The position numbers and the translations under genes were made by a program. DNA of 64,000 bases from Aquila chrysaetos chrysaetos (taxonomy: Eukaryota > Chordata > Aves > Accipitriformes > Accipitridae): contig NC_044005.1 in assembly GCF_900496995.4 (NCBI RefSeq), positions 18,667,363-18,731,362 on the forward strand, given 5' to 3'. The notes under the pieces are model-generated. The model made no database searches. It had not been told where the DNA came from and worked only from the letters and a program-made list of their open reading frames with translations. Shown here in pieces: positions 7,501 through 64,000 of this stretch (position 1 is the first letter of the stretch; each line of letters starts with the position of its first letter).

Positions 7501-10190
7501 AGTTGCAGTGACTTGAAGTGGACGTGTGATCTTTCCTTTCTCTAATGAAAAAATATAAGGTAGGTATACTCTGTCAAACTGTTAAAAGCTTTCTGCCAAT
7601 ACAAACTGTAATTCTCTAGGTTATGGAAACCAAAATACAGATTTTTATTTTTCTTTTTTTTAAATCTTAGAACCTCAGTGAGAACAGTAAGGGAACTCCT
7701 GCCAGTAGTCTGAACAACAGTCCCTTGCACGGAAGGAGGAACCAACAGCCTTTCCCCATCATGCACAAACACACAGAGAGCATCCTGGATTAATGCTGTG
7801 AAATTGATACATCCACTGTAACAGTCTTGATTCCAGCGTGCAGATAGTTGGAAGACTGGCAGCAGTATTAAGATAAAACAACACAGCATGCAATAAGCAA
7901 ACAAGCAGGCAATCCAAAAATATTACTTCTGAATTTAGTACATCCTAGATGAGTAACTGCTGAAAATCCAGGGGGACAGACTGCAACTAATTTCAAGCAA
8001 GACTACGGTTTAGCTGTCACGTTATTTACTTCATCTTGCAATCACCAACCAACCTGCTCCACCTACCTTGTTACCATTGCAACAGCCCCTATCACCCAGA
8101 GCCCAAGGAGCTGGGGCAGACTTAATTCTGAACACCACCACACCGACAAGTAGCAGCAGTGACCGTAAGATTTCTCCCACATTTTCTCAAACCCCTTTCC
8201 TATTTAAATGGTTCTAAGAATTGTCATTTCCTTCTTTTTGATTCATTTACACAGTTTCCAAATTATCAGACAATTTATCCTCATTCCTTTGTCTGGAAAA
8301 CTCAACAGATTAATGAAGCTAACGAAGCAAGAAATTAGGCATTCATAGCACAGATTAGATTATATCCATGGCAATGTACAAAGTATACCGTTAATTGTTT
8401 TTGTCTACAGCTAATGTATCATAAGCTACTTCAACAGATGCTATACAGAACATTTAAATGACACATATATCTATACAATCAACTTTGAAACCAGCATGCT
8501 CAAACTCTACATTGTAATTGTGTTCTTCCTCATTTGGCAGCTCCACAATGCAAACTCCACTCAAAAATCCTCAGAAGAAAATTCAACAGGCCACACCAAG
8601 CAAAATAAATACATTCCTTAAGCACCAATCAGCAAGGCCATATAGCAAGGTCTAAAATATTTGAATTAGTAGTAGTAGTAGTAAACCTTATTGAAAAGTT
8701 ACAGACCCAGAAATACAAAAATATTGACATCTTTGGAAATGATCCCTTTTTACATCTGAAACTTCTCAGCAGAACTAACGTAGTAAGTAAAAACCTGGCA
8801 TTTACAATGCTTTATATGCTCAAAGTACTGAACAAATAATAAAGCATTCTAACTACGTTATTAAGAAATAATATAACCATTTGCTTCGATTTTATAGAAT
8901 AAACAACAGCAAAGTAGCACAGCAACAGCAAAGACCAAGTATAGATTGGACAGTCTCATAGAGAAAACAAGTTCCTGACACTTCCCAGTCACATTCTCCT
9001 TTGCATTGACTTGAGAATAGCCCCAACTTTTGACCATCTGGCCTGGAGGCTCTGCCAGGTGTCTGGATTTAGACTGGAGTAACTACTTCTAGCAAACCCA
9101 AAGGCTTTATCTACCTAGCTCTCTCAGGCCTGTAGCCCTACAACAGCTTATCCACACCCAACTTCCCACTATGCATGGCAGGCAAGTTTGACAGCTTACT
9201 TCCATGGTGGAAGAGAAAAAACCTCACATCACCTCACATGGTGCATTGGGCAACAGCCAACACCATCTACCAGCTGGTGAAAGTGACTCACTCAGCAAAT
9301 GCAGCAGCACCTGTGCTTCTAAGGGTTGATGTATGGGGCCTGATGCAAGGTTAGGTCATAGCTCAGGGAGGTCAAGGTGAGCAGTAGAAATGAGGTAGAT
9401 CAATAACACAAAAGATTTAGGTATTAATTATGCAGCTTGTCAAATTAGCAAGGTATCTAAGGTTATCCCAGTGATTAAAAAATGTTAAAGACCCTGCTGT
9501 ACTCCACATATCTAACATACTACTACCACTAAATGCTCCATGAAGTGACAGTAAAACCATTACCTAGCCTTACCCTAGACATACTTGGCTTTTAAATATC
9601 TCTAGGTTCAATACTATTTAACTACCATTGCCTTGGCTCCTGATGGAATTATCTTCAGTAGTTTTTGCACTCTGTGTACTGGTAGACACAGAACTAACAC
9701 TTGAAGTCCGAGAGTGATTTTGAAGAACAGGTGCCTTGCTCTTCTCTTTTTTAGAGTCCATCCTTCCATTAGGCTCTTTCTCCGAACTGTTGAGAAAATC
9801 AAATAGTAACTCATCATCAGGTGCTGACTTTTTTCTTCTCACAAAATGTGAGGCAGCTCTGGGTGTGGAAACACCTTCTACTGGAGAAGCTACCTCCGAA
9901 GATGTCCTACGTGCTGGTTTAACGTTTGCTGTTCCTGCTAGGATTGTGACCTTTTGATGTTTAATATTATCAGCTGCTGAGGAGATGTAGGCTGCTTTGG
10001 AGGACGTCTGATATTTCAGCTCTCCAGCATGCTGGCGCAATTCAGAATATTCATTGGCAGAGTCCAAATTCTTATTATCATAAATTGCACTGCTTGCTGT
10101 GTCTTTTTTGCTGAGAGCTGATGCAGCTCCTTGATCAACTCTGTTGAGTAGATCCTCTGCCTTTCCGGCGAGATCAGCAAGCCAAGACAT
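1446..10190 (-). CDS. GOLGA5: GOLGA5 (golgin-84), N-terminal ~545 residues, seven coding exons
   Basis: Golgin-84 is a coiled-coil tether of the cis-Golgi, held in the membrane by a C-terminal tail anchor; it binds Rab GTPases and helps in ribbon assembly and intra-Golgi retrograde traffic (family knowledge). Coding exons in transcription order: 10190-9626, 6833-6612, 5541-5322, 4742-4619, 3772-3569, 2405-2235 and 1574-1446. All have GT/AG borders, and the phases (1,1,2,0,0,0,0) join without a break into 545 codons. The N-terminus (MSWLADLAGKAEDLLNRVDQ) is the conserved golgin-84 start. It is followed by a Ser/Thr-rich low-complexity region to about residue 215 and then by continuous heptad coiled coil. 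The vertebrate protein is about 730 residues, so about 185 residues with the end of the coiled coil and the transmembrane anchor lie beyond the left edge. I see no further exon in 1-1445. Confidence 0.95.
2235..2405 (-). CDS. GOLGA5: GOLGA5 coding exon 6 (residues 446-502)
   Basis: Acceptor TATTTCAG|TCTAAA and donor CTGCAG|GTAGCT, 171 nt, phase 0 to 0. It encodes SKEKLINSLKEGSGIEGLDS, then a Glu/Gln/Lys-rich coiled coil (MELEELRHERDTQREEIQKL). Confidence 0.94.
3569..3772 (-). CDS. GOLGA5: GOLGA5 coding exon 5 (residues 378-445)
   Basis: Acceptor TGCTAATAG|AGTGAG and donor CTCCAA|GTAAGC, 204 nt, phase 0 to 0. Coiled coil with SEFAARLSKMEAERQNLAEG, AERKYLDEKRRADELQQQVK and KQELTDYKQKATRILQ. 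Confidence 0.94.
4619..4742 (-). CDS. GOLGA5: GOLGA5 coding exon 4 (residues 336-377)
   Basis: Acceptor CTTTCAG|GATAAT and donor ATGCAG|GTTAGA, 124 nt, phase 2 to phase 0. The encoded segment runs RIIQDHSEGSSLQNQALQ, then LQERLRDADSALKREQESYK, heptad coiled coil. It has no methionine, so it is invisible to a simple start-to-stop search. Confidence 0.92.
5322..5541 (-). CDS. GOLGA5: GOLGA5 coding exon 3 (residues 263-335)
   Basis: Acceptor TTTTGTAG|AATTG and donor CACG|GTACTT, 220 nt, phase 1 to phase 2. It encodes coiled coil with the golgin-84 blocks VEKWNVDHSKSDRM, DDLTEAVGAKDSQLAVLKVR and LQEADQLLSSRTEALEALQ. Confidence 0.94.
6612..6833 (-). CDS. GOLGA5: GOLGA5 coding exon 2 (residues 189-262)
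   Basis: Acceptor TCTGTACAG|AAACTCC and donor GAAG|GTACTG, 222 nt, phase 1 to phase 1. It encodes the end of the acidic/Ser-rich linker and the start of the coiled coil (SHELSNLRLENQLLRNEVQ, with leucine/asparagine heptads), a strongly conserved golgin-84 block. Confidence 0.93.
9626..10190 (-). CDS. GOLGA5: GOLGA5 first coding exon (residues 1-188)
   Basis: ATG at 10190-10188; donor AATG|GTAGTT at 9625, phase 1. The start is the family's conserved N-terminus. The segment includes the conserved stretches SSAADNI, ILAGTANVK and SHFVRRKKSAPDDELLFDFLNSS and then a Ser/Thr-rich tail. Without splicing the frame hits a stop at 9618-9620. The same exon carries 51 nt of 5' UTR (10191-10241) after an acceptor TTTTGCAG. 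Confidence 0.95.
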
Positions 10191-10241
10191 GATGGATATC
10201 TCTTGGTAAACTTTATAAAATTATAATTTCAGGACCATGTG
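10191..10241 (-). other. GOLGA5: GOLGA5 5' UTR part of the first coding exon
   Basis: A good acceptor on the minus strand (CTTTTGCAG|CACATGG, AG at 10243-10242) lies 51 nt upstream of the ATG. The 5' UTR is therefore split and the promoter sits further right, consistent with the CpG island near 11 kb. There is one upstream ATG in this piece (CACATGG). Confidence 0.6.
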
Positions 10242-10859
10242 CTGCAAAAGACATAGAATGATTACAAATCAGATTGGTGTTGATAAGGCAAGATGTATGG
10301 GTTACCTAAACAACTGTTGTGTTAACCTATTAATGCTGTAATTATTTGAATACTTTTCTCCTACTCACTTGGTACTTCACTGTTTTGGTAACTGATGGAA
10401 ATAAACCAAACCTGTCTCTGAGGAAAACAGACAAAACCAAGGCTTAGCTATCAGACCACCATATCTGTTTCTGGCATCAGCACCTGCTACAGAGCAACCA
10501 GCCTGGTAGCCAATCTGCAACAATACTAGAAAATAAAGTCTACTTGCACCTGACAAAACCAAACTCAGCTGGAAGAGGAAAAGTGGCCAGATGCTTATTA
10601 CAGGAACAGATAACAAAGCCTTAGACATTTAGCCTGCAGATTCATAATCTGGGTCAGACAGAGGACCTTCTCCCCAACAAACTTCGCAGCCTGCCGTCCC
10701 TTCAGTGACACCGACACGGGGGACAGGGGCATGCCTTCACTTGCACCAAGGGCCTGCGAGACTACACAGGCGACGTGTGCCTCTATCCCAGCTCCCGGGA
10801 GGGGCTCCTTCACCCCAGGGCAGGCTTGTGGAGGGTCCCTTGGCCGAGCACACCCACAG

Positions 10860-11345
10860 CGGGAAGGGGGAAGCGCAGAGGCAGGCGAGGCCGGGCGGGA
10901 GGGCGATGCTCAGGGTGGCCCCCCCCTCCCCGCCCACCCTCAGCACGGCTGCCTGCCCCGGGCCCTCCCCCCCGCCCCTACCCGGCGGCCCTCAGGAGCG
11001 GCGGAGGCCTCAGCACAGCCCGGCCTCACCTCCTCCCAGCAGCGGGAGACCCCCGGCCCAAGGGGAGTCGTGAGAGGGGGAAGGGGAGAAGGAAGGGGGC
11101 ACCGGACGGCGACGGTCACTGCGAGGCCCCGGGCCGGGCTCGGCGGCGCAACCCCATCTTCCGGCAGACGTGGCCACCTTCCGGGACGCGGCGCGCAGGC
11201 GCAGGAAGCGCCGGGAGATGCGTGAGGTGGCACGGCGCGTCAAGCCCCGCCCCTCCCACCGGGCGGGGCGGGGCAGAGGCGGGAAGCGGGCGCAGTGCCC
11301 CTCCCTCCCGGTAACGGCCCTCCCGGTAACGGCCCTCCCCTGAGA
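10860..11345 (-). promoter_or_regulatory. GOLGA5: CpG island / TATA-less promoter of GOLGA5
   Basis: A dense GC and CpG stretch in otherwise AT-rich DNA, 0.7-1.2 kb upstream of the ATG-bearing exon. Visible motifs: two ETS-type CCGGAAG cores on the minus strand (about 11159-11165 and 11176-11183), an NRF1-like GCGCAGGCGC at about 11193, GC boxes (GGGCGGGGCGGGG) at about 11262-11274, and a 15-bp direct repeat at 11306-11335. There is no TATA box, as is usual for a housekeeping gene. The long open frames on both strands here come from GC bias. Confidence 0.75.
11030..11190 (-). other. GOLGA5: Likely GOLGA5 non-coding exon 1
   Basis: A strong donor on the minus strand (GGGAGGAG|GTGAGG) ends a GC-rich segment at 11030, and the downstream acceptor is at 10242. 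The upstream limit is not visible. I place the start near 11180 because ETS-type GGAA sites and an AAGATGG (YY1-like 5' leader) motif cluster at 11155-11185. Confidence 0.4.
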
Positions 11346-14300
11346 GGAGCGGTCCCCGGTGCTGTCGTTTTCTTCACTTCTGCCTTGTGATGGCAGGAGG
11401 AGCTCCAGCCCCACAGAGAGAAGGGTCAAGGAAGGTCTTTGCCGTGGCTGTTAAAAACAGCCAAGGGTGATCTTGCCTTTCCTGACCTGGGGTTTAAGGA
11501 TGGTGGTTTGTAAGTGGCTGCTTGACCTGACAGAAACTGTCTCGCTGCCTCTGCCCGGAAATGGCGGGTGACCTCTTTGGGGAGCCCCTGGCCTGCTCCA
11601 GGCCCGGGAAGCCTTTCTCCTTGTCTCTGTCCCCCATGTCAGGATGTCAGAGCATCATACAGGCCCACTGGAAAAAACTACTTTGGCCTTGATACTGCAA
11701 ATAAATTGTAGGAATTTCAACCAGAAGAAACTATGTGGGGCATTTATGTTCTGTTCTCCACAACTTGGGGAAGATGTGAAGGGAATGACCTGATCTTCAA
11801 GGGCAACTGTAAGATACCAAGGAACGTGGGACCCCCCAGATAAAACACCCACCCATCCCACACACAACAAGTACAAATAACTAAATGTGTCCATTTAACC
11901 ACCTGGATTCACAAAACTTTTATCAGCAGCTTTAATGTCCAGGCTTACCCTTACCCTGTTGCAACAATCCTTCCTATATGTTCGTCCTGTATGATAACAC
12001 TAATATCACCTTGTTTCTGCTGGAAATACTTAAAAGGTGCTGTGCAAGCAAAGGTGACTCTTACTTGGGTAAATATACTGAGGTTGTCTTAACTTTTCTT
12101 TCAGATTAAGTTCACATAAAGTGTCATGGCTAGGCTTAGAAGAGACATTAGTTGAGGTTAACACAAGGGCTTCCCACATCCTTAGGGACTCCTTTATAAG
12201 AGAATATCCTGGGACTAGTAAAGGGATCATCTAAGCTCTAAAGCCCCGATTTCAAGTGGCCCATTTCCTTTTTCAAAGCCCCATGATTTAGAGGTTTGCA
12301 TGACAAAAAAAGGGCACTTGCACACACTGAAACCAAGGGGCTTGGCATAAAGAACATGCTCAGCACTCTTTTTGGACAGATTTGCACTCTTGGGCAAGTT
12401 TTGCCTCCACCCAAAGAAGAAAAAAATGACTTTAAAAATTACTTTTGTTAAGTGAAAACTACTAACGTCTTACAAGGAATAAAATACAGCTCCAACAGTG
12501 AGTGATACTTACGAATATTTATTATCATTAATTACATAAAAAGAACATTCAGGAGGAAGGAAGGATTCTGGCTTTTCTGACAGACGAACAGAAGTCTTTT
12601 ACTATGGCTTAGTGTGTATGGGGTTGACGTAAACAGCAAGTAACTTTTAGATAATCTCAGAACAGTTTTTATAGTAGGGTAAAAAGAAAAGAACACTTCT
12701 CCTGGGATGTTGTTTCATCTGTCTCGAAGTTACTGTACTCATTAGCTGAAAGGGGAAGTGGAGCCCCAGACATCTATTTCACGTATTAAGCACATGATGG
12801 TGAGCGAAGAAGAAGAAAAACGAAACTTTTTGTGGAAGGCTATCGCAACTTCACTTCTCTGACAGGTCAGCTAAGGCAAAGGTTGGAAGAGGTAACTTCA
12901 GGAATATGGCTTATGTCACATGCAAAAGGCTAAGAATGGAGCACAATTGCTCCAGTACTAAAAGCAAATGTATAATACAGCAAATTCCCTTGACAAAACA
13001 AAATTCACATTTACTTACTCTTAACAAGTAAGACTGACTTAGGAGATAGTATTTTTAGTAATTTTGAGTCACTCTTTCAAGTCAAAACCTTTTAGTTGAC
13101 GTCAGATTTATACAAGAGAGCTCAAGATCCTTCTCACGTTCTTGTCCACATATGTTTTGCTATTTAGACTCTTTCTCAAATGAGATGCTTGAGTGAAGAC
13201 ACTTGGCGAGCATTGTTTAGAGGGACTCCTGTACTGTGGATGTCCCCATGCTCGTGACTGACTTCTTTCCCTCTCATCATCTGTGACTCAGTGTTCCAAA
13301 CCTGCAGTACTTGAACTCTTTCAAGCTTTATGGCTGTTATGTCTCTTCTGTAAATGCTTATGCTTAGCAAGGATAGCTGTTAAAGTATATGTAGTATTAC
13401 GTTAGGGGTTTTTTTTGTTGGTCATGTTCTTTCTCCCACCTCCCCCTTTATTTGTTTCCTCAAACAATCTTCCATAGCAACATATTGCAACTAATCACTA
13501 TACTTTTTCCATGGAGAACTTCTACTCACGCCTGAGGTACCAGGAAGAATGTGAATGAAGACAACACTTACAGGTCCTGCCACTTCAGATCCTCCTCTCT
13601 TGAAGACCTTTTCTCCTCCTGAGTTTCTGATTATAATGCTGAATTCATAGTTGGTGGCTTACATCCACATTTCCCCAAAGCTCTAGATGTCATCTTGTCA
13701 GATCAAACCTTACAAGTATTTTCTGATTAAATTCACAGGTATGCTGAATGTTGTTATCAGGTAGCCTCCTCTGGTTTATAGAAGTTTCCTTACATCTTAT
13801 CATGGTATCCTCTTCCTACAGGGAACCCACAAGGTTTGGGAAGATCATGGAGAGCTCCTGTGTAGGACAAAGGCTCCTGTCTACAGATATGAATTATCAA
13901 TTATCATTGGGCCTCATTAGGACTCACACCCAAGGAGGAGACATCAGCCCTGCTGCCTATTCAGAACATAGTCACAGCACTCGTACTGGCATGAGTTAAT
14001 AGAAAATCCATCCTGCCTCATGACAGATTAAGCAACACATTGGAAATAATAAACCAAATCAATTCACAGCCTTCAACTTCTATATCACGTGACTCAGCTG
14101 CACATAATCATAATTTCAATTAATGTGAATATATCACCTTCTCAGACACTAAGAAAAAAAGAGTTCAGGAAGTCCAAAATAAATGTAGGGTATCTTCTCT
14201 TTATGTAATATTTAAAACCCTGACAACAAATGCCACTGGTGTGGGATGGGAAGCTCATCTAGACCACTCAAGTTAATCATAACATCCTAGAGTTAAAAGC

Positions 14301-23700: not shown

Positions 23701-24719
23701 TCGTCTTCCCATCTATCATTTTTCACAATAAGGAACATCCTGCTGATGTTTGATGAATGTAGAATTTATAGACGGGTTATTTGGCAATGATATTATCAGA
23801 CTTTTTAGAATTGACAGCTGACACAAGGTGTACTTACCTCATGTAACCCAGCTATGACAAACAATACGAAAAACACCTTTGGACTTGAATGACGGGTCAG
23901 CGATGCTTTTAACTGATACTAGGTAACTTTTAGGGCAGGAGGATAATACTCGAAACATAAGCATAACCCATGTGGCTACTAAGCTCAAACTAAATTGAGG
24001 GGAAAGGAAGGTTTAGGGCTTGTTTTTTCCTGTTGGATAATCAGCATGATGGTCTTTGTCAGTTCAAAAAGGTCATCCCTGAACCAGCCCAAATTTTAAC
24101 AGCTTGGCTGCGTCAGGAGGCATGCCAGGTTACTGGGGACTCCAGCTTCTAGAAAAGGACTGACGATTAACCCATAATGACCTTTTACGTTTACGATCAT
24201 AAGCAAAGCTAAGGGTCCAAATAACACAAATGGCAAACTCAGAGCAAAACTATGACTTACTGCAGATGTTCAAAAACACGGTTGGTAACAAAATGCAAAC
24301 TTTTTAACTGACAGTCAGCATGCAAGGGGGAAGCTGGTGTACTCCTTTCTGTGTGGTTTATTAGGCAAAGAGCAGGTGCCTCTGTTTTTCAGAAAGGACC
24401 TTTGCTTCTCTTTCTCTCATCAAAAATGGAGAAGACTTTACAGCAGCGTTTCTCAGGCTTTTTCGTAGTACATAACCAAAAACCCACCACACCTCTGACT
24501 ACTGGTGTGTGCCGATTTGAGTACCGTACCCGAGCCACTCCTGCGCAGCAGGGAGCGGGCCAGGAGCAAGGGCTGGCACGGTCTGCGGTGAGAAGCCAGG
24601 ACTCGGCTGGCGATCGCTGCTGAAATACACAACGACGATGTGGGGGCATTAGTTTTTTTCCGTCATTTCGTGAATTACCCTTTGACACATTCCTCCCCCT
24701 TTCCGTTCTGGGCCTCCTC

Positions 24720-25480
24720 ACGGAGGCGCTGACCCGTCCCTGCCCCAGTCACAACGCGCACGAAGCACGCACGAACACCCCTGCCGCCCGCGGCCCGGCA
24801 GCCCCCCGCGGCCTCCAACCCGCCCCCGCCCCACGCTCCCCAGCTGCACCCGGGGCAGCGCGAGTCGCCGCGCAGCCGGGGGACTACAACTCCCACCGTG
24901 CTTTGCGCGCAAGGCCCGCGGCCCTTTGAGCGCGGGGGAGCGCCGGGCTTGCTGGGGCACGTAGTGCGGCCGGGCGGCTGTCCAGCCGCTCCTCCGCCCG
25001 GCCGCGATTGGCCGGGGCCAGTCTCCGCCCGCCGCGGCCCGTGGTCGCCTCGCTCCGCACGGCGCCTGCCGCAATCACAGCGGCCGCGGCGGCGACACCT
25101 CCGCAGGCAGCGCGGTAAGGGCCGGCCGGCGGGGGCCGCGCTGGGCGCCCGGGGAGCATCGGGACCGCCTTGTCCAGGGAGGGTTCTGTCACAGCCGGCG
25201 GCTGGCTGGCTGGCGGCGGGGCGGAGGCAGGGGTACGCCGGAGTGAGGGGAGCCGTGAGGGCGTGCCAGCCCGCTCCTCTCCCCGGCGGCAGAGCTGCCT
25301 GGGGTCGGGGCGAGGGGCCCCGCCGGCTCCAGGGGAGCGGCCGAGGGGCGCTGGTTTCCCTCACCGGCTCCGAGTGCTGCCGAGCCCCCTAACCCCCCCC
25401 CCCCCCGCCCCGGCTGGCGGGGTCTGTTCGAGGCCCGACCGTTAGTGAGCGCCGGGGCTGAGGCTGGGCGGCGGTTCGGT
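24720..25480 (+). promoter_or_regulatory. LGMN: CpG island promoter of LGMN
   Basis: GC-rich, CpG-dense block with no clear TATA box. Visible motifs: a ZNF143/Staf-like element (ACTACAACTCCCACCGTGC, 24883-24901), a second related element in opposite orientation (complement of 24947-24965), a TTGCGCGCAA palindrome (24903-24912), an inverted CCAAT box (GCGATTGGCC, about 25002-25011), and a strong splice donor at 25114/25115 closing the presumed first exon. The long open frames on both strands (for example 24675-25364 minus) are a GC-bias effect. Confidence 0.75.
25015..25114 (+). other. LGMN: Likely LGMN non-coding exon 1
   Basis: GC-rich segment downstream of the inverted CCAAT box, ending at a consensus donor GCGCG|GTAAGG (exon end 25114). 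The transcription start is not determinable. The placement follows from the CpG island and the need for a 5' UTR exon upstream of the acceptor at about 32200. Confidence 0.5.
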
Positions 25481-28400
25481 CGATTTGCAGGCACCCCCCG
25501 CCTTGGGACGCCGGGAGAGGGGTCTGTCAGCCCGCCGATCCGCCTGCGCGTTGCGGGCATTGCCGCAGAGCGCCGAGCTGCGCCCTCGGTGATGCCTTTA
25601 GTAAAAGGGGTTTGGGCACAATTGTCCCCCTGCCACGGGAGCTGCATTTGAGCTCGCCTTTGTGGAAGGCCTTCGCCGGGGAGAGGAGTCAAATGGCTCA
25701 GAGCTGGCACAGGAGAGATGAGGGAGATCTGGGGGGAAGCAGTGGCAGCAGCCGCACCCGTTTAGTCCCCGGTAATACGTTTTTAACGGGGGAGAACGAT
25801 GGAGTAAGAATTTACAGGTTTTCTGCAAAGAGCTGATGATGCACGGAAGGTGCTGCACTGTGGCTGCAGTTACTCATAGCTGGTAGACAGCCTTGCCATA
25901 ACGTGAAGGTGTGCTCAGAGTTAGTAGCACCACTAGTTCCTAATTAGGATGGGACAGCACTGTGTTGGGTGTCTGTATTTGGGGGTTAAAACAAAGATTG
26001 CAGTGAAGATCTGAAACGCTAAGATAAACCATAGTAAAAGAGACGTGGAGTGCAGGAATCTCAGACTTTCTGCGTAATCACTTCTCCAGGATTTCATTTT
26101 GTCCACACTCCAAACGTTTCCATGTTTGTTGAACGGAAATGCCTACCCTCATCTGACTTACTCCTCTAACCTTACCCCCCTGCCCCGCCCCAAATCATGT
26201 AATACAATACATTATTCATGCAGTGTTGCAGTAGCTGTTTTTTTCTACCATCAGAATGTGATTGCAGAGGCTTTGTGTATTTGTAGACAGATATGAAAGT
26301 AAATAGCAGAGGCAGTTTTACTGAAGCCTTAAGATCTGCCAAATTTTAATCTGCGCTTTTTGAAGTGCATAGGGAAAAAAAAAAAAATCCCCTAAACCAA
26401 ATGTTGGATTGTCAGCATCCTAGGAAGCATAAGGAGTGATTTTATCCCTCACTGCCCCCCCCGGTATATGGTGCCATCTCTCTGCTGCTGAGAAAGTTCA
26501 TTCTACTGTTTGCAGATTTGTCTTTATTTAAAATAACTTTTAAATACTCTTATTTAATGTTAAAAAAAATGTTTAAGACCATTCTGAGTTAACGTAATTA
26601 CAAATTCTTGTTTTTACAGTAAAAGTTACTTATACATCTTCAGTAGCTATACTAAACTATTCTACTACAAGTTCTAATCAAATTAAGCTGATTCATGAAA
26701 TGGTTACTAGTAGACTTTGTAAAGAATTATTTTGCAACAGAGACCTTCATCTCCTTCAAAATGTACCTTGTCAGAGTTCACAGTGATAAAGACTTGTTGT
26801 TTCTACCGTACAAGTGCATAAAGAAAATTGCACTAATTCTGCAGGGGTTTAATCACAGGTTTAGGTGCTTCAGTTTGCGTAGCAGCCGGCACAACACGTA
26901 GGCAAAACATTGCTGATGGAGAACTGCAGACAGTTTCCTGTGAGGAGGGCTATAGTGAGTCAAATATTTTGTGGAAATCGGCATCTAAATATTACAGTGA
27001 CAGGCAATATGCAAGCACTGTGTGAGAAAAGGAATTGTGACTTGATTCTGAAAACTAAAAGGCCATTAAAAGTGGTTGTAAGAAGAGCAGCTGAAAAGAA
27101 ATAGAGATTTCCAAGAAAAGCTAATCAGCTGATCATTCCAGTTTAAGGCTGTTCTTTTTCCCTGAGGTTACTGTTAACTCACTTATTTCACATGAAGGGA
27201 AAATGGATATATGGTTTCAGTTTATGTAGCTTTCGGAGGCTGTCCTTGAGGTATTTGGAGTTTAAGTTACCAAAGTGTCAACATCACTCTAAACACTAGT
27301 GGAAAATACTTTGATCAGCTCAAACTCCTTTCTTTAGGGTGATATCCTGTTCTAAGATTTTTTGGTCTTAGTGGACTGTTTCCCAAAGGAAAGTTGGGAA
27401 ACTCAGGGAACAGGCTGTTGACCAGAAGAATTGTTCTAGCAGCAGCTGGCCACTTCCAGATGTAGTCTGTCTTATGCATCCCTTTCTTATCAAGTCAGAG
27501 ATGTGTGCTAGCCATGTAATGGGAAGTGGTCAAGGTACCTCTGTCAGGAAAAACAGGTTTTAAGAGCTGAGTGAATTGTTCTGGCAAGAGCCACCCAGTT
27601 CTGGCCATGCTTCTTCCAGGGACTGTGCACACTGTGCAGCAGCCTGCCTGCATGTGTACATGCTGTTGCTCTGCATATGTAGATCTGATGCTGAACCCAC
27701 TATGTCTGTGATATGTTCCTTTTTCCTAATACGGTCTCCAAAGCAAAGTTAATAAACTCTTCTACCAGAAAGACTAGGCAGAGCTGATCAAATCATCTGG
27801 TCGACAGCCAGCTGAATATGAGCCAGCAGTGTGCCCAGGTGGCCAAGAAGGCCAATGCATCCTGGCTTGTAATGGCAATAGTGTGGCCAGCAGGAGCAGG
27901 GAAGTGATCGTCCCCCTGTACTCGGCACTGGTGAGGCCTCACCTGGAGTACTGTGTTCAGTTTTGGGCCCCTCACTACAGGAAAGACATTGAGGTGCTGG
28001 AGCGTGTCCAGAGAAGGGCAACCAAGCTGGTGAGGGGCCTGGAGCACAAGTCTGATGAGGAGCGGCTGAGGGAGCTGGGGCTGTTTAGTCTGGAGAAAAG
28101 GAGGCTGAGGGGAGACCTTATCGCTCTCTACAACTGCCTGAAGGGGGGCTGTAGTGAGGTGGGTGCTGGTTTCTTCTGTCAGGTGGCTGGTGATAGGACG
28201 AGAGGAAATGGCCTCAAGTTGTGGCAGGGGGGGTTTAGGTTGGATATTAGGAAAAATTTCTTCAATGAAGGGGTTGTCAGGCACTCGAACAGGCTGCCCA
28301 GGGAAGTGGTGGAGTCACCGTCCCTGGAGGTGTTCAAAAAATGTGTAGACGTGGCACTATAGGACATGGTTTAGTGGGCATGGTGATGTTGGGTTGACGG

Positions 28401-58734: not shown

Positions 58735-59424
58735 ATCTCTGGGTCTGGCACTGGGGACCCCCAGTCCCACCATACATGGACCCCATGCAGTGTGATACCT
58801 GTGCACAGGTGGTGGGAGGTGAGGTGGGTACATGGCTTGGAGTACTACCAAGGGGGGGGGCGAGGAGGCTGGTGGGAGGTGGGCCAGAGAGCTAGTCTGG
58901 GCCCATGGTTTAGGTGGGAAAGGGAGGCAAGAGGTGGGGGGGGTGTCCTTTGGGAGAGTGGGTGCAAAACAGGATTTGGAGAGTGTGTGTGGGGGGCAGG
59001 TTTGAGAAAAAAAGGAAGGTTCGTTAGTGATGCTGCCCAGAGGTTGGACCCTCCTGCTGCCACAGGCCCAGGGGTGACAGTCGAGATCGTCCTCAGCATG
59101 GCCAACACAGAGCAGGTCAGCCCTCAGGACATATGGACATCAGCGACGGTACCTACAGCAGAAATAGGACAACCGGCCTCTCTGTGCTGCGTTTCAGGCA
59201 TTTACTGGCAGTGCTTCCACCAGAGGGGGAAACTGCCATGAGCTCACCCAACATGCAGGGATGGTGGTGGGCTGAGGAGCCGGGCAGGGTGAGGACAAAT
59301 TGCCTCACAGCCGGAATGCCCAGGGGACCCTTGTCCCGATCCAATGTCGGGGAAGGTTTCGATATGATCCCAAGAGCGAGATTAAGACACAAACGAGGTC
59401 AAATGCCGTATAGTCAAAAGAGGT

Positions 59425-59430
59425 TTTATT
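59425..59430 (-). terminator. LTR polyadenylation signal (AATAAA)
   Basis: The complement of TTTATT; a T/G-rich element (TTTGTGTCTT) follows about 30 nt on, as expected downstream of a cleavage site near 59400. Confidence 0.7.
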
Positions 59431-59493
59431 ATCAAAAGTATCAAAAGTGGAAAATGGTAGCGATAGGATAGAATGGAAGAAAAGGTAGAAATT

Positions 59494-59708
59494 AAGCAAG
59501 CAGTCGGGATAGAGTTGCAAGGATAGTCACCACCATGGATCCAGCGGCGTCCCGTCGGCCCTCAGGCAAGCAGTCGGTGGTGGGAGTTGCAAGGATGGTC
59601 ACCAGCACGGATCCAGCGGCGTCCCGTTGGTCCTCAGGCCAGCAGTTGGTGGTGGGAGTTGCAAGGATGGTCACCAGCACGGATCCAGCGGCGTCCCGTT
59701 GGTCCTCA
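59494..59708 (-). repeat. 72-bp tandem repeat, about three copies, inside the LTR
   Basis: Copies start at 59515, 59587 and 59659, exactly 72 bp apart, each beginning TTGCAAGGAT and containing GGATCCAGCGGCGTCCCGT. The last copy is cut at 59708, and a partial unit (GCAAGCAGTCGG) precedes the first. Copies 2 and 3 are nearly identical; copy 1 differs at several sites. The array lies between the TATA box and the poly(A) signal, so it should be in the transcribed R/leader region. Confidence 0.9.
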
Positions 59709-59766
59709 ATCTTCAATTCTTTGGTGAGGAAGAAAAGGCCTCCCCACCGCTTGTTTCTAGGGGTTC

Positions 59767-59772
59767 TTTATA
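59767..59772 (-). promoter_or_regulatory. LTR TATA box (TATAAA)
   Basis: The complement of TTTATA reads CCTATAAAGAACC on the minus strand. Transcription would start about 25-30 nt further on, near 59740. Confidence 0.65.
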
Positions 59773-60063
59773 GGGCATATTTCGATGATGTCATGCGCTG
59801 CAGGTTTCATTCATCACACACGACCTTCGCGTGATCGATACCAGAAACCAATATCTTATCAGCTCCAGCCCAGTTTCCTCCCCTGAATGCCTCAATGGCC
59901 TGGTAATCGTCCTTATGGACAGAGGAGTGTCCCGCTTAAACCGGCCATCTTGGAGACAAAGGGCTCTGGATGAGCAGTTCACAGTTCCTTGATGACAGCC
60001 CAGTCCCTCATACCTCACAATCTTTGAGGCAAATGGTTCGAGATAACAATTCAGCCTCTAACA

Positions 60064-60147: not shown

Positions 60148-61983
60148 TTATATAATCTGTATTACCAACAGTGTGGTTCGGTGCACAGCGCGAATTTGTT
60201 TAACACCGTCAGGCAAAATAGTAGTTACAAATTGCATATTAGTTACAACACGTTGAATCAATTGTATAAAGCATGGAATGACACATGGTAAAAAGAATAA
60301 CATGGCAAAACCACACAACAAGTAAAATAGCATTCGTTTAACCCATGGACCTCCAGGGAGCCAGGAAAACATATCTATGTCCCAGCTTTTCCATGTCTGG
60401 ACAGGAACATGGGCCAGCTTTCGTATTCCCGCAGTAATTTGTTTAACAATTTTCCCGCTGTCATCAATTTTTAAACAACAGTTAGAATCATTTAGTTTAC
60501 CACAAACACCTCCTTCCTCGGCTAGCAGGTAATCGAGAACCATGCGATGTTGTAATATTGCTGTTCGCATTTGTGTAGCTTGATCCGCCAATAGATCAAG
60601 GGCACGGGCTGTCTCGTTAGTAATGATCTCTAGGACAGCTTGTAACCGGATGATGCGATTTAGGTTATAGATAGGTTCTTGAGCACTGCTAACCCACTCA
60701 TTGGGGTTCCAGGTGGCAGGTCCATAATGTTGTATAATACGTTGAGGCGTCCACTTGTCTTTGCCCCAGGTTTGACCACTCCCACCTGCTATAGAGGTAT
60801 CAATGGATCGTCGATATCGATTGAGATCATCATATACTTTAACACCCAGTCCATCCCCTTCATCGTCTGGGAGCAGGAAAAACAAAGGGTGAATTACCCC
60901 CACATAACACACTCCAGTCCAATTTGTTGGTAGCAGTTTGTAGGCCCGTTGGCCACACACCCAATAGTGACCCTTTAAGGCTCGTGCACCATTTTCAAAC
61001 AAACCAGTAGGTGTCTGTGGTGATTGGAAATATGTTGAATTACCTACTCCCAGAGGATGATCTGATGGACCGTTCATCAACAACCTGTCCACAGTTTTTC
61101 CCACCCCCTCTGTGGTGTCCCAGCAGATAGGAAGCCCATCCGGACCTATACTCAAATGTCCCTTACAGTAGTCTTTATTATCACTTGACCACCAAATTTG
61201 AGTCCCATCAGGGAGACGAGAATATGTTTTATCAGTGAGTCTGCATTTCCAGGCACCAGAATCATGGTGCCAAAAGCAGGTAACATTAAGGTTATTAGAC
61301 TGATTAGTGGAAGACCAAAAATGGGAAAACTGTTTCCTGTGTCCTGTTTGATTCACCCAGGCCCATCCAGACCAGCGAGGCACAAAATTTGGAGAACTAG
61401 AACTCAAAAGGCGACAATATGCCTGGTCGCCCCCCTCTGGCAGTGATATAGCTGCCCTATGGTTTGAACAATCAATTGGTCTACAACCATCAGTGAGGCA
61501 ATGGTTGTCATAAGTATAGGTCCAGTTGCACTTGCTATTTCCCACGGGAATACCATCTTTCTGTGTTCGGTTCAGACAATATTCACCTTGGACTGGGTAT
61601 TGTATTGTCCAGGGCTGCATGTCTTCACTCCAGTAAGAATCATTTTTGACCTCACTGTAATTACTCACTAACCATTTTGGGGAAATAGGGACAGCAGTCC
61701 ATGGCCAGCTTTCCAAACCTAAGGGCCCACCACATACCCAACAATTAGTCAGATTAAAAGTGTTGGCCACTTGCTGGCCTAGAGCCACAAATTCATTTTG
61801 CCACTCCAAGCCGAAAAGAGGGGCACAGGAGTTTCCCCAGATATTAAAGGCGGCAACAATAGTTGACCAAAACAACATCTGTGGTGTTATAATGAACATT
61901 CTGTGAATATTAACAAAGCAATCACTGACAAAACTACACAAACAATTAACAGTTTCACGTATTTCCTCTTGAATGGTTAACAT
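60148..61983 (-). CDS. env: ERV envelope glycoprotein part
   Basis: Receptor-binding and fusion glycoprotein (family role). From the Met at 61983 it is 611 codons; a second Met at 61899 directly precedes a signal-peptide-like hydrophobic stretch, giving 583 codons. In fusion-frame numbering: CXXC motif CWVC at 639-642; about a dozen N-X-S/T sequons; furin-type RYRR at 947-950 dividing SU from TM; heptad-like region about 1005-1035; gamma-type immunosuppressive-like segment about 1033-1050; Cys1052 and Cys-Cys 1060-1061; membrane span about 1109-1134; cytoplasmic tail of about 35 residues. No frameshift or stop. The TM N-terminus after cleavage is polar and Gly/Ser-rich rather than a classic hydrophobic fusion peptide. 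Confidence 0.9.
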   Translation of the reverse strand: MLTIQEEIRETVNCLCSFVSDCFVNIHRMFIITPQMLFWSTIVAAFNIWGNSCAPLFGLEWQNEFVALGQQVANTFNLTNCWVCGGPLGLESWPWTAVPISPKWLVSNYSEVKNDSYWSEDMQPWTIQYPVQGEYCLNRTQKDGIPVGNSKCNWTYTYDNHCLTDGCRPIDCSNHRAAISLPEGGDQAYCRLLSSSSPNFVPRWSGWAWVNQTGHRKQFSHFWSSTNQSNNLNVTCFWHHDSGAWKCRLTDKTYSRLPDGTQIWWSSDNKDYCKGHLSIGPDGLPICWDTTEGVGKTVDRLLMNGPSDHPLGVGNSTYFQSPQTPTGLFENGARALKGHYWVCGQRAYKLLPTNWTGVCYVGVIHPLFFLLPDDEGDGLGVKVYDDLNRYRRSIDTSIAGGSGQTWGKDKWTPQRIIQHYGPATWNPNEWVSSAQEPIYNLNRIIRLQAVLEIITNETARALDLLADQATQMRTAILQHRMVLDYLLAEEGGVCGKLNDSNCCLKIDDSGKIVKQITAGIRKLAHVPVQTWKSWDIDMFSWLPGGPWVKRMLFYLLCGFAMLFFLPCVIPCFIQLIQRVVTNMQFVTTILPDGVKQIRAVHRTTLLVIQII

Positions 61984-63741
61984 CTTTGCTGCCCCCTCAG
62001 ACACAGTAAAAATGTCACAATAATGCTCTATCTGGGCATACCATTTTTGTACAGAGGCTCTCTGAGCCACCCCGTCAGGGGGCGGAGTTCCTGCTAAAAC
62101 AGTCTTGGTTACTTTAAACGGGCCTCTAAGTACTATAGACTGCTGTCGAATAGTCCGTTCAGCCTCTCTCAAGGCTAGACTGACTACAAACAAACCTTTC
62201 TCCCAAGCAGTATATCTTTTTTCTGCATCCTTAAAACTGCGAGAATAGAACCCAATAGGTCGAGTGGGTCCTTTGGGGCCCTTTTGCCATAAATGTATTG
62301 ATAACTCACTTTTGGCAAATCCCCATTCAATATGGACAGGGTCTGTGGGATGAATAGGACCAAGGGCTTGATGGGCAGTTGCTTCAAAAATTAGCAATTG
62401 CAATACCTCTTCGTGGGGCTTGGTCCATTCCCACTGAGCCCCTTTTCGCAACAAGTCATATAGGGGTCTTGCAATAATTGAAAAATCAGGGATATGTTTC
62501 CTCCAAAACACAAGTAATCCTAGTACGTGCTGTAAATCCTTTTTTGACTCTGGCATTTTAATCTGATCCAATGAGGAAAGGGTGTCAGGGGGGATACATG
62601 TCATCCCTCCCTTCCACCAAATTCCTAAAAACTTTACTTCGCTTGAGGGTGTTTGTATTTTCTCTGGTGGAGTTTTCAGCCCCAAGCTTTCCAAGTGAGA
62701 AATTATGTTATCTTGAGTTTTCCGAACCTTTTCTGTTTCATCCCCACCTACAAGAATGTCATCAATGTACTGATAAACACTGACCCCTTCCTCTGTCTGA
62801 ATTACTTCTAGCTCCTGCGCTAATGCATGATGAGCCAGAGTGGGGGAATGCTTGTATCCTTGTGGGAGTCGGGTAAAAGTAAATTGCTGACCTTCCCAAG
62901 TAAATGCAAAGCGGTCTTGATCCTCTGTTTGCAGGGGGACCATAAAAAACATATCTTTAACATCCACTGTTGCCATAATCGGGTGGGCTCGTTCTTGGAT
63001 TGTAGCTATAAGCTCAGCAATATTTGGTACCGCAGCTGTCAATGGACCAGTATTTGCATTAAGTCTGCGATAATCTACAGTTAATCTCCACTTGCCGTTA
63101 GGTTTTCGCACTGGCCACACCGGGGAGTTAAAAGGAGAATGGGTTGGAATCACAATACCCTGTCCCTTTAAGTCCTCTAACACAGGCGCTATTCCCTCTC
63201 TGGCCCCCAAGGGTATTGGGTAGGGCTTAACATTTGTAAGCTTTGAAGGGGGAAGCAGCGGCGCGGCTTTTAACAGCCGAATATCTATTGTGGGAGAGCC
63301 AAACGACCACTGTCTGCTTTGGTTATCAATCCAGGTTTTTCCTTTTAAAACATCGAGTCCTAAAAGGTTAAGTGGAAACTCCCCCACAACCATTGTCACT
63401 GTAGTGGCATTATCTTCTCCTGGCAAACGCAGGCTGACCATTGCTAATGCCTGTGGCTGAACAATGCCGAATGCATCTGCCACAAAAAGCCGCTGTTTGG
63501 AGGGTGTAATTCCGCAATTAGCAGCATCTTTAGTTTTAATAGCTGAAATCTGAGCTCCGGTATCTACCAAAAAGGTGACTGGGACTTGTCTTGGTCCCAC
63601 AATGCCTGTAATTAGTAAATCACCCTGGCCGTTTTCAGTGAGCTGTCTAATATACATCCAACCTTCGCCCCCCCGCTCACCACTGGAAGGCGAAGGATCT
63701 AGTTTCCCACCGGCTCTTGGGTGGCATTTGTTTCTGATAAA
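60148..63741 (-). CDS. ERV protease-RT-envelope fusion open reading frame
   Basis: Open without a stop from 63741 to TAA at 60150-60148; the first ATG is at 63657, giving 1169 codons from there (residue numbers below count from it). Residues 1-110: aspartic protease with active-site DTGA (32-35). About 140-350: reverse transcriptase with the first catalytic Asp at 232, LPQG at 264-267 and the YIDD box at 297-300. About 351-545: thumb and connection. From about 559: envelope. No RNase H acidic residues, HHCC zinc finger or DDE integrase core are found, so several hundred codons normally between RT and env are deleted, and the deletion happens to keep frame. Upstream, the frame begins inside the gag overlap, so translation of the pol part would depend on frameshifting. 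Whether the fused product is made is unknown. Confidence 0.9.
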   Translation of the reverse strand, partial: FIRNKCHPRAGGKLDPSPSSGERGGEGWMYIRQLTENGQGDLLITGIVGPRQVPVTFLVDTGAQISAIKTKDAANCGITPSKQRLFVADAFGIVQPQALAMVSLRLPGEDNATTVTMVVGEFPLNLLGLDVLKGKTWIDNQSRQWSFGSPTIDIRLLKAAPLLPPSKLTNVKPYPIPLGAREGIAPVLEDLKGQGIVIPTHSPFNSPVWPVRKPNGKWRLTVDYRRLNANTGPLTAAVPNIAELIATIQERAHPIMATVDVKDMFFMVPLQTEDQDRFAFTWEGQQFTFTRLPQGYKHSPTLAHHALAQELEVIQTEEGVSVYQYIDDILVGGDETEKVRKTQDNIISHLESLGLKTPPEKIQTPSSEVKFLGIWWKGGMTCIPPDTLSSLDQIKMPESKKDLQHVLGLLVFWRKHIPDFSIIARPLYDLLRKGAQWEWTKPHEEVLQLLIFEATAHQALGPIHPTDPVHIEWGFAKSELSIHLWQKGPKGPTRPIGFYSRSFKDAEKRYTAWEKGLFVVSLALREAERTIRQQSIVLRGPFKVTKTVLAGTPPPDGVAQRASVQKWYAQIEHYCDIFTVSEGAAKMLTIQEEIRETVNCLCSFVSDCFVNIHRMFIITPQMLFWSTIVAAFNIWGNSCAPLFGLEWQNEFVALGQQVANTFNLTNCWVCGGPLGLESWPWTAVPISPKWLVSNYSEVKNDSYWSEDMQPWTIQYPVQGEYCLNRTQKDGIPVGNSKCNWTYTYDNHCLTDGCRPIDCSNHRAAISLPEGGDQAYCRLLSSSSPNFVPRWSGWAWVNQTGHRKQFSHFWSSTNQSNNLNVTCFWHHDSGAWKCRLTDKTYSRLPDGTQIWWSSDNKDYCKGHLSIGPDGLPICWDTTEGVGKTVDRLLMNGPSDHPLGVGNSTYFQSPQTPTGLFENGARALKGHYWVCGQRAYKLLPTNWTGVCYVGVIHPLFFLLPDDEGDGLGVKVYDDLNRYRRSIDTSIAGGSGQTWGKDKWTPQRIIQHYGPATWNPNEWVSSAQEPIYNLNRIIRLQAVLEIITNETARALDLLADQATQMRTAILQHRMVLDYLLAEEGGVCGKLNDSNCCLKIDDSGKIVKQITAGIRKLAHVPVQTWKSWDIDMFSWLPGGPWVKRMLFYLLCGFAMLFFLPCVIPCFIQLIQRVVTNMQFVTTILPDGVKQIRAVHRTTLLVIQII
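61984..63741 (-). CDS. pol: ERV protease and reverse transcriptase part (pol, 3'-truncated)
   Basis: Protease cleaves the Gag-Pol polyprotein and RT copies the RNA genome (family roles). Protease and RT lie in one frame with no separate pro frame and no dUTPase in between. Motifs in order: VDTGAQ at 31-36; a hydrophobic LLGLDVL near 98-104; RT fingers with PVRKPNGKWR at 182-191; catalytic Asp232; LPQG; YIDD; FLGI near 343-346; then the connection subdomain to about 545. The RNase H domain does not follow. The exact breakpoint cannot be placed without an intact relative; it lies near 61984-62025. Confidence 0.9.
63662..63708 (-). promoter_or_regulatory. -1 programmed ribosomal frameshift signal (gag to pro-pol)
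   Basis: The slippery heptamer G-GGA-AAC, in gag phase, occupies the complement of 63702-63708 and directly abuts the gag stop TAG. After a 5-nt spacer comes a stem: CCTTCGCCTTCC (complement of 63696-63685) pairs with GGGGGGCGAAGG (complement of 63673-63662), 12 bp with two T-G wobbles and an 11-nt loop. The pol frame is open for 45 nt upstream of the slip site, as needed. GGGAAAC is a known retroviral slippery sequence (for example at D-type gag-pro). Confidence 0.88.
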
Positions 63742-64000
63742 TCAATCAGGGAAGGTGTGCTCAGGGTAGTATTCTCAAAATCCACTTTTCTGTTTACTGG
63801 TTTATCAGGCCACGCTGTTACCAATTTTTCCAATTTGTCTGTTGGCATCCCGTCCATTAAGCTACGCGGGATCCCCTTCTGGTATCCCCGCGCCCACAGT
63901 ATATTACGTTTGTTCGGGATATCTCTCCCCCCCGGCGGTTTAGCAAGGGGTGTTCTCTTATCACTCCCAGGGCACGGAACTATTTTTACTTCAGTCCGCC
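63699..64000 (-). CDS. gag: ERV gag C-terminal frame (partial)
   Basis: Open from the window edge to TAG at 63701-63699, about 99 codons, in the 0 frame relative to the frameshift signal; pol lies in the -1 frame. Basic and proline-rich at first, then more acidic/polar. It holds one Cys only, so no Cys-His zinc knuckle is within these residues. Any nucleocapsid must lie upstream, and this would be a C-terminal extension. The assignment to gag rests on its position before the frameshift site. Confidence 0.65.
   Translation of the reverse strand, partial: RTEVKIVPCPGSDKRTPLAKPPGGRDIPNKRNILWARGYQKGIPRSLMDGMPTDKLEKLVTAWPDKPVNRKVDFENTTLSTPSLIDLSETNATQEPVGN

What the first reader, a model, noticed from the sequence alone, without database searches (positions are those of the whole stretch)
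60148..63657. Single uninterrupted protease-RT-envelope fusion frame of 1169 codons
Seen: one open frame runs from the retroviral protease through RT/connection and, near residue 545-559, straight into envelope, with no RNase H or integrase in between. Known: pol and env are normally in different frames and env is made from a spliced RNA. Inference: a large deletion, or reverse transcription of an unusual spliced RNA, joined them in frame, and the product stayed open over 3.5 kb. That could be a young private allele or a propagated variant family such as other deleted avian ERV groups.
Basis: partly seen in the sequence, partly recalled or inferred. Interest (0 to 1): 0.75.

Follow-up and report, generated by a model that had tools for sequence, protein, structure and literature searches.

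The report
Mobile retrovirus missing its integrase
In what appears to be the golden eagle genome, a shortened retrovirus whose polymerase runs straight into its envelope gene has copied itself to about twenty places, although it lacks the enzyme needed to insert itself; it most likely borrows that enzyme from full-length relatives.

Summary
The frame is real: 60148-63657, minus strand, 1169 codons; protease, RT and connection run into Env at 61962/61961. It is neither a private allele nor an assembly collapse. The junction lies at 21 places in this genome (pattern with up to 2 mismatches). All 19 fetched copies that keep both LTRs have 5-bp target-site duplications, 18 of them distinct insertions. 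Five of 20 keep the whole frame. IN-bearing relatives in the same genome have 1466-1473 nt more here (9 examined), encoding RNase H and integrase (protein match in 3 of 3 tested). Both breakpoints sit in a short direct repeat (GAGGAAA or AGGAAA) without splice signals: a deletion, not a reverse-transcribed spliced RNA. It also removed the likely env splice acceptor. Twelve young deleted and six young IN-bearing copies differ fixedly only at -27, +8 and +15 nt from the junction, so they recombine. Shared variants show constraint on PR-RT, none detected on env. Best reading: a defective subfamily mobilised in trans. Closest precedents are HERV-K(HML-2) type 1 and cattle ERVK[2-1-LTR] defective elements; this is a new avian variant of a known kind.

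The parts
60148..63657 (-). PR-RT-Env fusion frame, 1169 codons
   Evidence: same full frame in 5 of 20 fetched copies
63343..63585 (-). aspartyl protease domain (residues 25-105)
   Evidence: PF13975 E 4e-11
62620..63111 (-). reverse transcriptase polymerase domain (residues 183-346)
   Evidence: PF00078 E 2.1e-26, matches to gammaretroviral and foamy virus RT
62131..62427 (-). connection, RNase H-like fold (residues 411-509)
   Evidence: PF17919 E 1.2e-12
61961..61968 (-). deletion junction 61962/61961 at the repeat GAGGAAA (61968-61962); IN-bearing copies have 1466-1473 nt here
60148..61899 (-). env frame from its own ATG, 583 codons, signal-peptide-like start
   Evidence: the Aquila chrysaetos Env P0111 starts at the same residue
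60808..60819 (-). RYRR, probable SU/TM cleavage site (function recalled)
   Evidence: motif scan, env residue 361
60256..60645 (-). transmembrane subunit part of Env (TLV_coat)
   Evidence: PF00429 E 3.8e-11, Syncytin-2 E 4.2e-20 for the env piece as a whole
59332..60063 (-). 3' LTR, 732 nt, TG...CA, preceded by a purine-rich tract ACGGGGTGG
   Evidence: the 5' LTR lies beyond the window edge (L009 7092-7823), 1 mismatch in 732
63702..63708 (-). slippery heptamer GGGAAAC directly before the gag stop codon (63699-63701); the minus-one frame enters the fusion frame
   Evidence: GGGAAACTAG present in 20 of 20 copies
63662..63696 (-). stem-loop 5 nt after the slippery site (CCTTCGCC / GGCGAAGG)
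   Evidence: -31.1 kcal/mol for 63635-63712, z -3.4, 0 of 200 shuffles as low
63699..64000 (-). 3' part of gag (513-codon stop-to-stop frame, continues beyond the window)
   Evidence: no Pfam family above cut-off

Best explanation
The frame is part of a complete but defective endogenous retrovirus of about 6.9 kb, one member of a subfamily that carries one deletion. Shown: the stretch encoding RNase H and integrase, the pol stop codon and the likely env splice acceptor are gone, joined at a short direct repeat; the junction occurs at 21 loci; the copies bear integrase-type 5-bp target-site duplications; they share variants in recombined form with IN-bearing copies; their PR-RT part shows constraint. 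Inferred: the deletion arose by template switching of reverse transcriptase between the repeats; the deleted RNA is packaged with, and integrated by proteins of, the IN-bearing relatives; it recombines with them in mixed particles; PR-RT-Env is translated only as a Gag extension after a minus-one frameshift at GGGAAAC, and its env part is mainly a passenger.
For: 21 junction loci, 19 at 0, 1 at 1 and 1 at 2 mismatches to the pattern. 5-bp TSDs in 19 of 19 copies with both LTRs, 18 distinct (17 copies; L024 and L027 read from the flanks). LTR pairs 0 to 1.15% different in the 17. IN-bearing copies with env 96.7-98.8% identical to the window's (3 copies); 459 codons of RNase H-IN open in 6 of 9. 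Repeat and lack of GT-AG at the breakpoints. Deleted and IN-bearing env sequences interleave in one tree (27 tips, L028 and L036 dropped); 21 polymorphic env columns shared by both groups, no fixed env difference; over 3509 columns fixed differences only at -27, +8, +15 nt, and 34 of 74 informative sites show all four combinations with the deletion. A deleted and an IN-bearing copy share an env stop at codon 260. Shared variants: PR-RT N/S 0.39 of expectation (0 of 1000 permutations as low), env 1.04 (584 of 1000); PR-RT against env p 0.008. Variants private to deleted copies: PR-RT 0.52 (53 of 2000).
Against: No RNA or protein evidence for any copy; no test that a relative's integrase works. 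With all 19 deleted and 7 IN-bearing copies no difference is fixed, so the tight flank holds for the 12 and 6 copies that I called young by sequence. The 7-nt repeat could give the same deletion more than once, so a single origin is not proven. The N/S test is unpolarised, treats sites as independent and skipped multi-allelic sites (5 pol, 4 env); for variants private to deleted copies pol against env gives p 0.07, and unbroken frames (pol 12 of 20, env 7 of 20) p 0.20. IN-bearing copies show no significant env constraint either (0.63 and 0.75), so lack of env constraint is not special to the deletion. The window-fold pairs the slippery site itself in an outer stem, which is not the textbook arrangement.
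Confidence: 0.88

Rival explanations
1. Reverse transcription of an aberrantly spliced genomic RNA joined a pol donor to an env acceptor.
For: The frame joins a pol domain boundary to a place just upstream of env, where env acceptors normally lie.
Against: The deleted stretch begins CAAGCC (or GAGGAAAC... if slid along the repeat), not GT, and does not end in AG at the join; the strong acceptor-like site TTTCTTTTCTCTCTCAG lies about 36 nt inside the deleted stretch (3 copies, 9 copies).
Confidence: 0.03
2. The fusion protein itself is the reason for the spread: a Gag-PR-RT-Env polyprotein puts Env into particles without splicing and gives the deleted genome an advantage.
For: Whole frame kept in 5 of 20 copies; the -1 frame from the gag stop leads into it; PR-RT constrained.
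Against: No constraint detected on env in deleted copies (1.04; 0.88 and 1.69); an env stop is shared by two copies; one of the five full-frame copies has a G-run one base shorter after the slippery site, so there the frame is not reached by the same shift.
Confidence: 0.06
3. The deletion arose several times independently at the same direct repeat and each copy is a separate accident.
For: The repeat would give the same junction each time; some older deleted copies share flank letters with older IN-bearing copies.
Against: Twelve young deleted copies share -27, +8 and +15 letters against 6 young IN-bearing ones, most simply by descent of a deleted template; no other junction was sought, so the rate of other deletions is unknown.
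Confidence: 0.07

Closest known systems
HERV-K(HML-2) type 1 proviruses
   Same: A shared deletion at the pol-env boundary fuses the pol and env frames; the deleted form was propagated ('mobilized quite efficiently' despite lacking functional proteins); some copies keep the fused frame open; a splice site is lost (passages of PMC524368, and PMC3228705).
   Different: There 292 bp, and per PMC3228705 a part of env is lost; here about 1.47 kb, RNase H and integrase lost and env whole from its ATG. Different retroviral group and host.
Cattle ERVK[2-1-LTR] defective (D-type) elements
   Same: About 6.8-kb defective subclade beside about 10-kb competent elements, mobilised with help in trans, recombining with them, with association kept only next to the deletion boundary (passages of PMC10924933).
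   Different: Mobilisation in cattle was observed de novo; here it is inferred from sequence. An in-frame pol-env fusion is not mentioned in the passages I saw.
Avian class I ERVs with ENS-3-like pol
   Same: PR-RT 46-83% identical to bird and turtle pol proteins over various lengths, several named pol-like protein ENS-3; PR-RT 77% identical to P0002, which has RNase H and integrase.
   Different: Of the 29 proteins none was recognised as carrying this junction.
Mouse IAP I-delta-1 (recalled, no call)
   Same: Deleted, fused-frame, trans-mobilised subfamily.
   Different: Gag-pol fusion, not pol-env. Recalled only.

Membership tests
Endogenous retrovirus (LTR provirus) | Two matching LTRs with TG...CA ends and a target-site duplication | tested here: met
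   Window copy: 732-nt LTRs, 1 mismatch, TSD AGGGT
Gammaretrovirus-like (class I) ERV | Pol closest to gammaretroviral/foamy RT and gamma-type Env | tested here: met
   Best PDB chains are Gag-Pol or RT of the MLV/XMRV type and foamy virus RT; Env matches TLV_coat and Syncytin-2. Names of virus types partly recalled
Gammaretrovirus-like (class I) ERV | CX6CC motif in the transmembrane subunit (recalled) | tested here: not met
   No C-6-CC in Env; the motif is C-7-CC, also in 5 of 6 avian Env relatives
Non-autonomous ERV subfamily mobilised in trans | Shared lesion in an essential gene in many independent insertions | tested here: met
   21 loci, 18 distinct insertions with TSD, no RNase H or integrase domain
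Non-autonomous ERV subfamily mobilised in trans | Relatives in the same genome that encode the missing enzymes | tested here: met
   459 codons of RNase H-IN open in 6 of 9 IN-bearing copies
Non-autonomous ERV subfamily mobilised in trans | Observed new insertions that depend on a helper | not testable with these tools
   Needs population or germ-line data
HERV-K(HML-2) type 1 | HML-2 betaretroviral lineage with the 292-bp deletion | tested here: not met
   Class I-like pol and Env; deletion about 1.47 kb. Works like it, is not one
Cattle ERVK[2-1-LTR] D-type | ERVK lineage of cattle | tested here: not met
   Bird genome and class I-like proteins; same dynamics only
Domesticated host gene | Single conserved locus with constraint on the whole frame | tested here: not met
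   21 scattered loci, most frames broken (15 of 20)

The most novel reading that the evidence does not exclude
The Gag-PR-RT-Env polyprotein is really made, goes into particles and supplies Env, or an RT freed from RNase H and integrase, in a way that gives the deleted genome a replication advantage over its helper, so that the fusion is a selected trick and not a passenger of a deletion.
Probability: 0.07. Interest if true: 0.75.

Novelty: new variant of a known kind. Interest (0 to 1): 0.45.

Why it matters
It gives a bird counterpart to the human HML-2 type 1 and cattle defective elements. Here one lesion removes RNase H, integrase and the likely env splice acceptor at once, and the copies still spread recently (three LTR pairs without a mismatch). 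With both forms in one assembly, it makes testable how retroviral parasites of retroviruses arise, persist and exchange sequence with helpers, and whether a pol-env polyprotein is tolerated.

Tried and rejected
Spliced-RNA origin: rejected from the breakpoint letters. Assembly collapse or private allele: rejected. Domesticated single-copy gene: rejected. Same junction elsewhere: none in viral contigs (with protein pieces also empty). P0069 looks, by eye, like another differently deleted pol-env frame. The collections held no other bird's DNA, so whether other eagles carry the junction is open. A count of undeleted pol junctions by pattern did not complete. Papers: searches list no title on such an element in eagles; only listings were seen there. 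PMC10924933, PMC524368, PMC3228705, PMC3835772 and PMC3128044 were seen as passages.

Full report
What is there. The window holds, on its minus strand, one open frame of 1169 codons at 60148-63657. In two pieces it matches aspartyl protease, reverse transcriptase and connection, then Env. By sequence the polymerase part is closest to MLV-type and foamy virus RT, the Env part to Syncytin-2 and other class I fusion proteins. RNase H (PF00075) and integrase (PF00665) do not appear.

The element. The frame is inside a provirus. The 3' LTR is 59332-60063; the 5' LTR lies beyond the window edge. In L009 (the window's own place with more flank) the two LTRs differ at 1 of 732 positions and are flanked by AGGGT on both sides. 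Upstream is a 513-codon gag frame with no Pfam family above cut-off. It ends in GGGAAAC-TAG; the minus-one frame from that heptamer leads in phase into the fusion frame, with a strong stem-loop 5 nt downstream. GGGAAAC is the shift site of MPMV, JSRV, HERV-K10 and others (table passage of PMC3835772). GGGAAACTAG is present in 20 of 20 copies, but the G-run in the stem varies in length; one of the five full-frame copies has one G fewer, so there the frame is not reached by the same shift. Frameshifting is inferred, not shown.

The genome. The window is G000:C2:18667363-18731362, 1.23 Gb. Contig C37 has 88,216,475 bases, the length of the contig given for an Aquila chrysaetos chrysaetos protein (P0027), so this is most likely the golden eagle (taxonomy). 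Pol relatives are bird and turtle ERVs, some named ENS-3.

Not one copy. A 201-nt query over the join matched 40 scored places of 147 candidates: 21 over nearly all of it, 19 only to the join, give or take a base. A query from the env side gave the same split, 21 and 19 of 40 scored from 63 candidates. A 24-nt pattern with up to two mismatches found 29 places: 21 with the junction, 8 with a different pol-side neighbour (CTGAGGAAA or CCGAGGAAA); the reversed control pattern gave 1. Two of those 8 were fetched and carry the undeleted stretch. More divergent copies would be missed.

Independent insertions. Twenty of the 21 were fetched. Nineteen keep both LTRs, and all nineteen have perfect 5-bp target-site duplications: seventeen, L024 and L027 read from the flanks. 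L013 and L014 share theirs and lie 15 kb apart, so there are 18 distinct insertions. LTR pairs of the 17 differ by 0 to 1.15%, three without a mismatch. With a bird rate of about 2e-9 per site and year (recalled), this is 0 to about 3 million years. An element without integrase that bears integrase-type duplications was integrated by something else.

What was deleted. Nine IN-bearing copies were examined. They have 1466-1473 nt between the two breakpoints. In the three tested by protein, this stretch matches RNase H and integrase of P0002. Six of nine keep 459 codons open to the pol stop. The pol side reads CAAGAGGAAA|CAAGCC, the env side CCTGAGGAAA|TACGTG in one copy and CCCAAGGAAA|TACGTG in two: a 7- or 6-nt direct repeat. 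No sliding within it gives GT...AG. About 36 nt inside the deleted stretch stands TTTCTTTTCTCTCTCAG|GT (TTTCTTTTCTCTTTCAG|GT in one), in 9 of 9 copies, a good acceptor by eye. A weaker candidate, TTTGTTAATATTCACAG, directly before the env ATG, remains in the window's copy. Template switching of reverse transcriptase at the repeat is the likely cause (inference).

One recombining population. In an env tree of 27 copies (L028 and L036 dropped) deleted and IN-bearing copies interleave. Between 12 young deleted and 6 young IN-bearing copies (chosen by me on sequence) no env column is fixed, 21 are polymorphic for the same letters in both, and 141 of 465 pairs of informative sites show all four combinations. 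Over PR-RT, leader and env (3509 columns) the only fixed differences lie 27 nt before and 8 and 15 nt after the join; 34 of 74 informative sites show all four combinations with the deletion state; mean r2 beyond 60 nt is 0.10. With all 19 deleted copies (L014 left out) against 7 IN-bearing ones nothing is fixed, and r2 at -27 and +15 is 0.81. One deleted and one IN-bearing copy share a stop at env codon 260 through the same letter. This is what co-packaging and exchange predict, as found for cattle ERVK[2-1-LTR] (passages).

Selection. Five of 20 copies keep the whole frame; PR-RT is unbroken in 12 of 20, env in 7 of 20 (difference p 0.20). For variants shared by at least two of 19 copies the N/S ratio is 0.39 of expectation in PR-RT (30 N, 38 S; 0 of 1000 permutations as low) and 1.04 in env (35 N, 15 S; 584 of 1000); PR-RT against env p 0.008. 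Singletons give 0.80 in both. Split by whether IN-bearing copies hold both letters: PR-RT 0.26 (2 of 2000) and, private to deleted copies, 0.52 (53 of 2000); env 0.88 and 1.69, neither low; for private variants PR-RT against env p 0.07. IN-bearing copies show PR-RT singletons at 0.42 (3 of 2000) and no significant env constraint (0.63, 0.75), so relaxed env is a trait of the family in this sample, not clearly of the deletion. Some PR-RT constraint may have come in by recombination from IN-bearing copies.

How it most likely works. The deleted RNA is made from its LTR, packaged with IN-bearing relatives' RNA and proteins, copied, and integrated by their integrase. It may contribute Gag and, by frameshift, PR-RT; Env rides along, probably without its own spliced RNA. 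Stop codons in shared lineages (pol codon 445 in three copies, env codon 237 in two; same letter not checked) agree with spread without the whole product.

Known or new. HERV-K(HML-2) type 1 is the closest in structure: a propagated 292-bp deletion that fuses pol and env frames (passages). Cattle D-type elements are the closest in dynamics. The eagle element is a member of neither, but works like both. New are the host and group, the size and the domain-clean cut, and the loss of RNase H, integrase and likely env acceptor in one step. None of the titles listed describes it. Overall this is a well-supported, moderately surprising variant of a known kind.

Noticed in passing
59512-59727: Three 72-nt tandem repeats in the LTR; LTR length among copies is 584 to 930 nt, consistent with changes in repeat number.
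   Followed up: partly
env frame, about 60440-60470 (minus strand): Env has C-7-CC (CGKLNDSNCC) where class I Envs have CX6CC (recalled); the same in 5 of 6 avian Env relatives looked at.
   Followed up: partly
63662-63696: The G-run inside the frameshift stem differs in length between copies, so gag-pol phase changes between copies.
   Followed up: partly
P0069 (protein from a metagenome source): By eye a different pol-to-env frame: connection, an integrase-zinc-finger-like stretch, then an Env 29.5% identical over 281 columns.
   Followed up: no
G000 C27-C31: Eight of the 21 deleted copies lie on contigs C27-C31 of 2.0-11.7 Mb; whether these are W-linked or microchromosomes was not tested.
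   Followed up: no
L009, directly after the 5' LTR: TTTAAATTGGCGTCACGGACAG follows the LTR; the primer tRNA was not assigned.
   Followed up: no
24001-26000 and 10001-12000: G+C of 0.62 and 0.55 against about 0.38 around.
   Followed up: no
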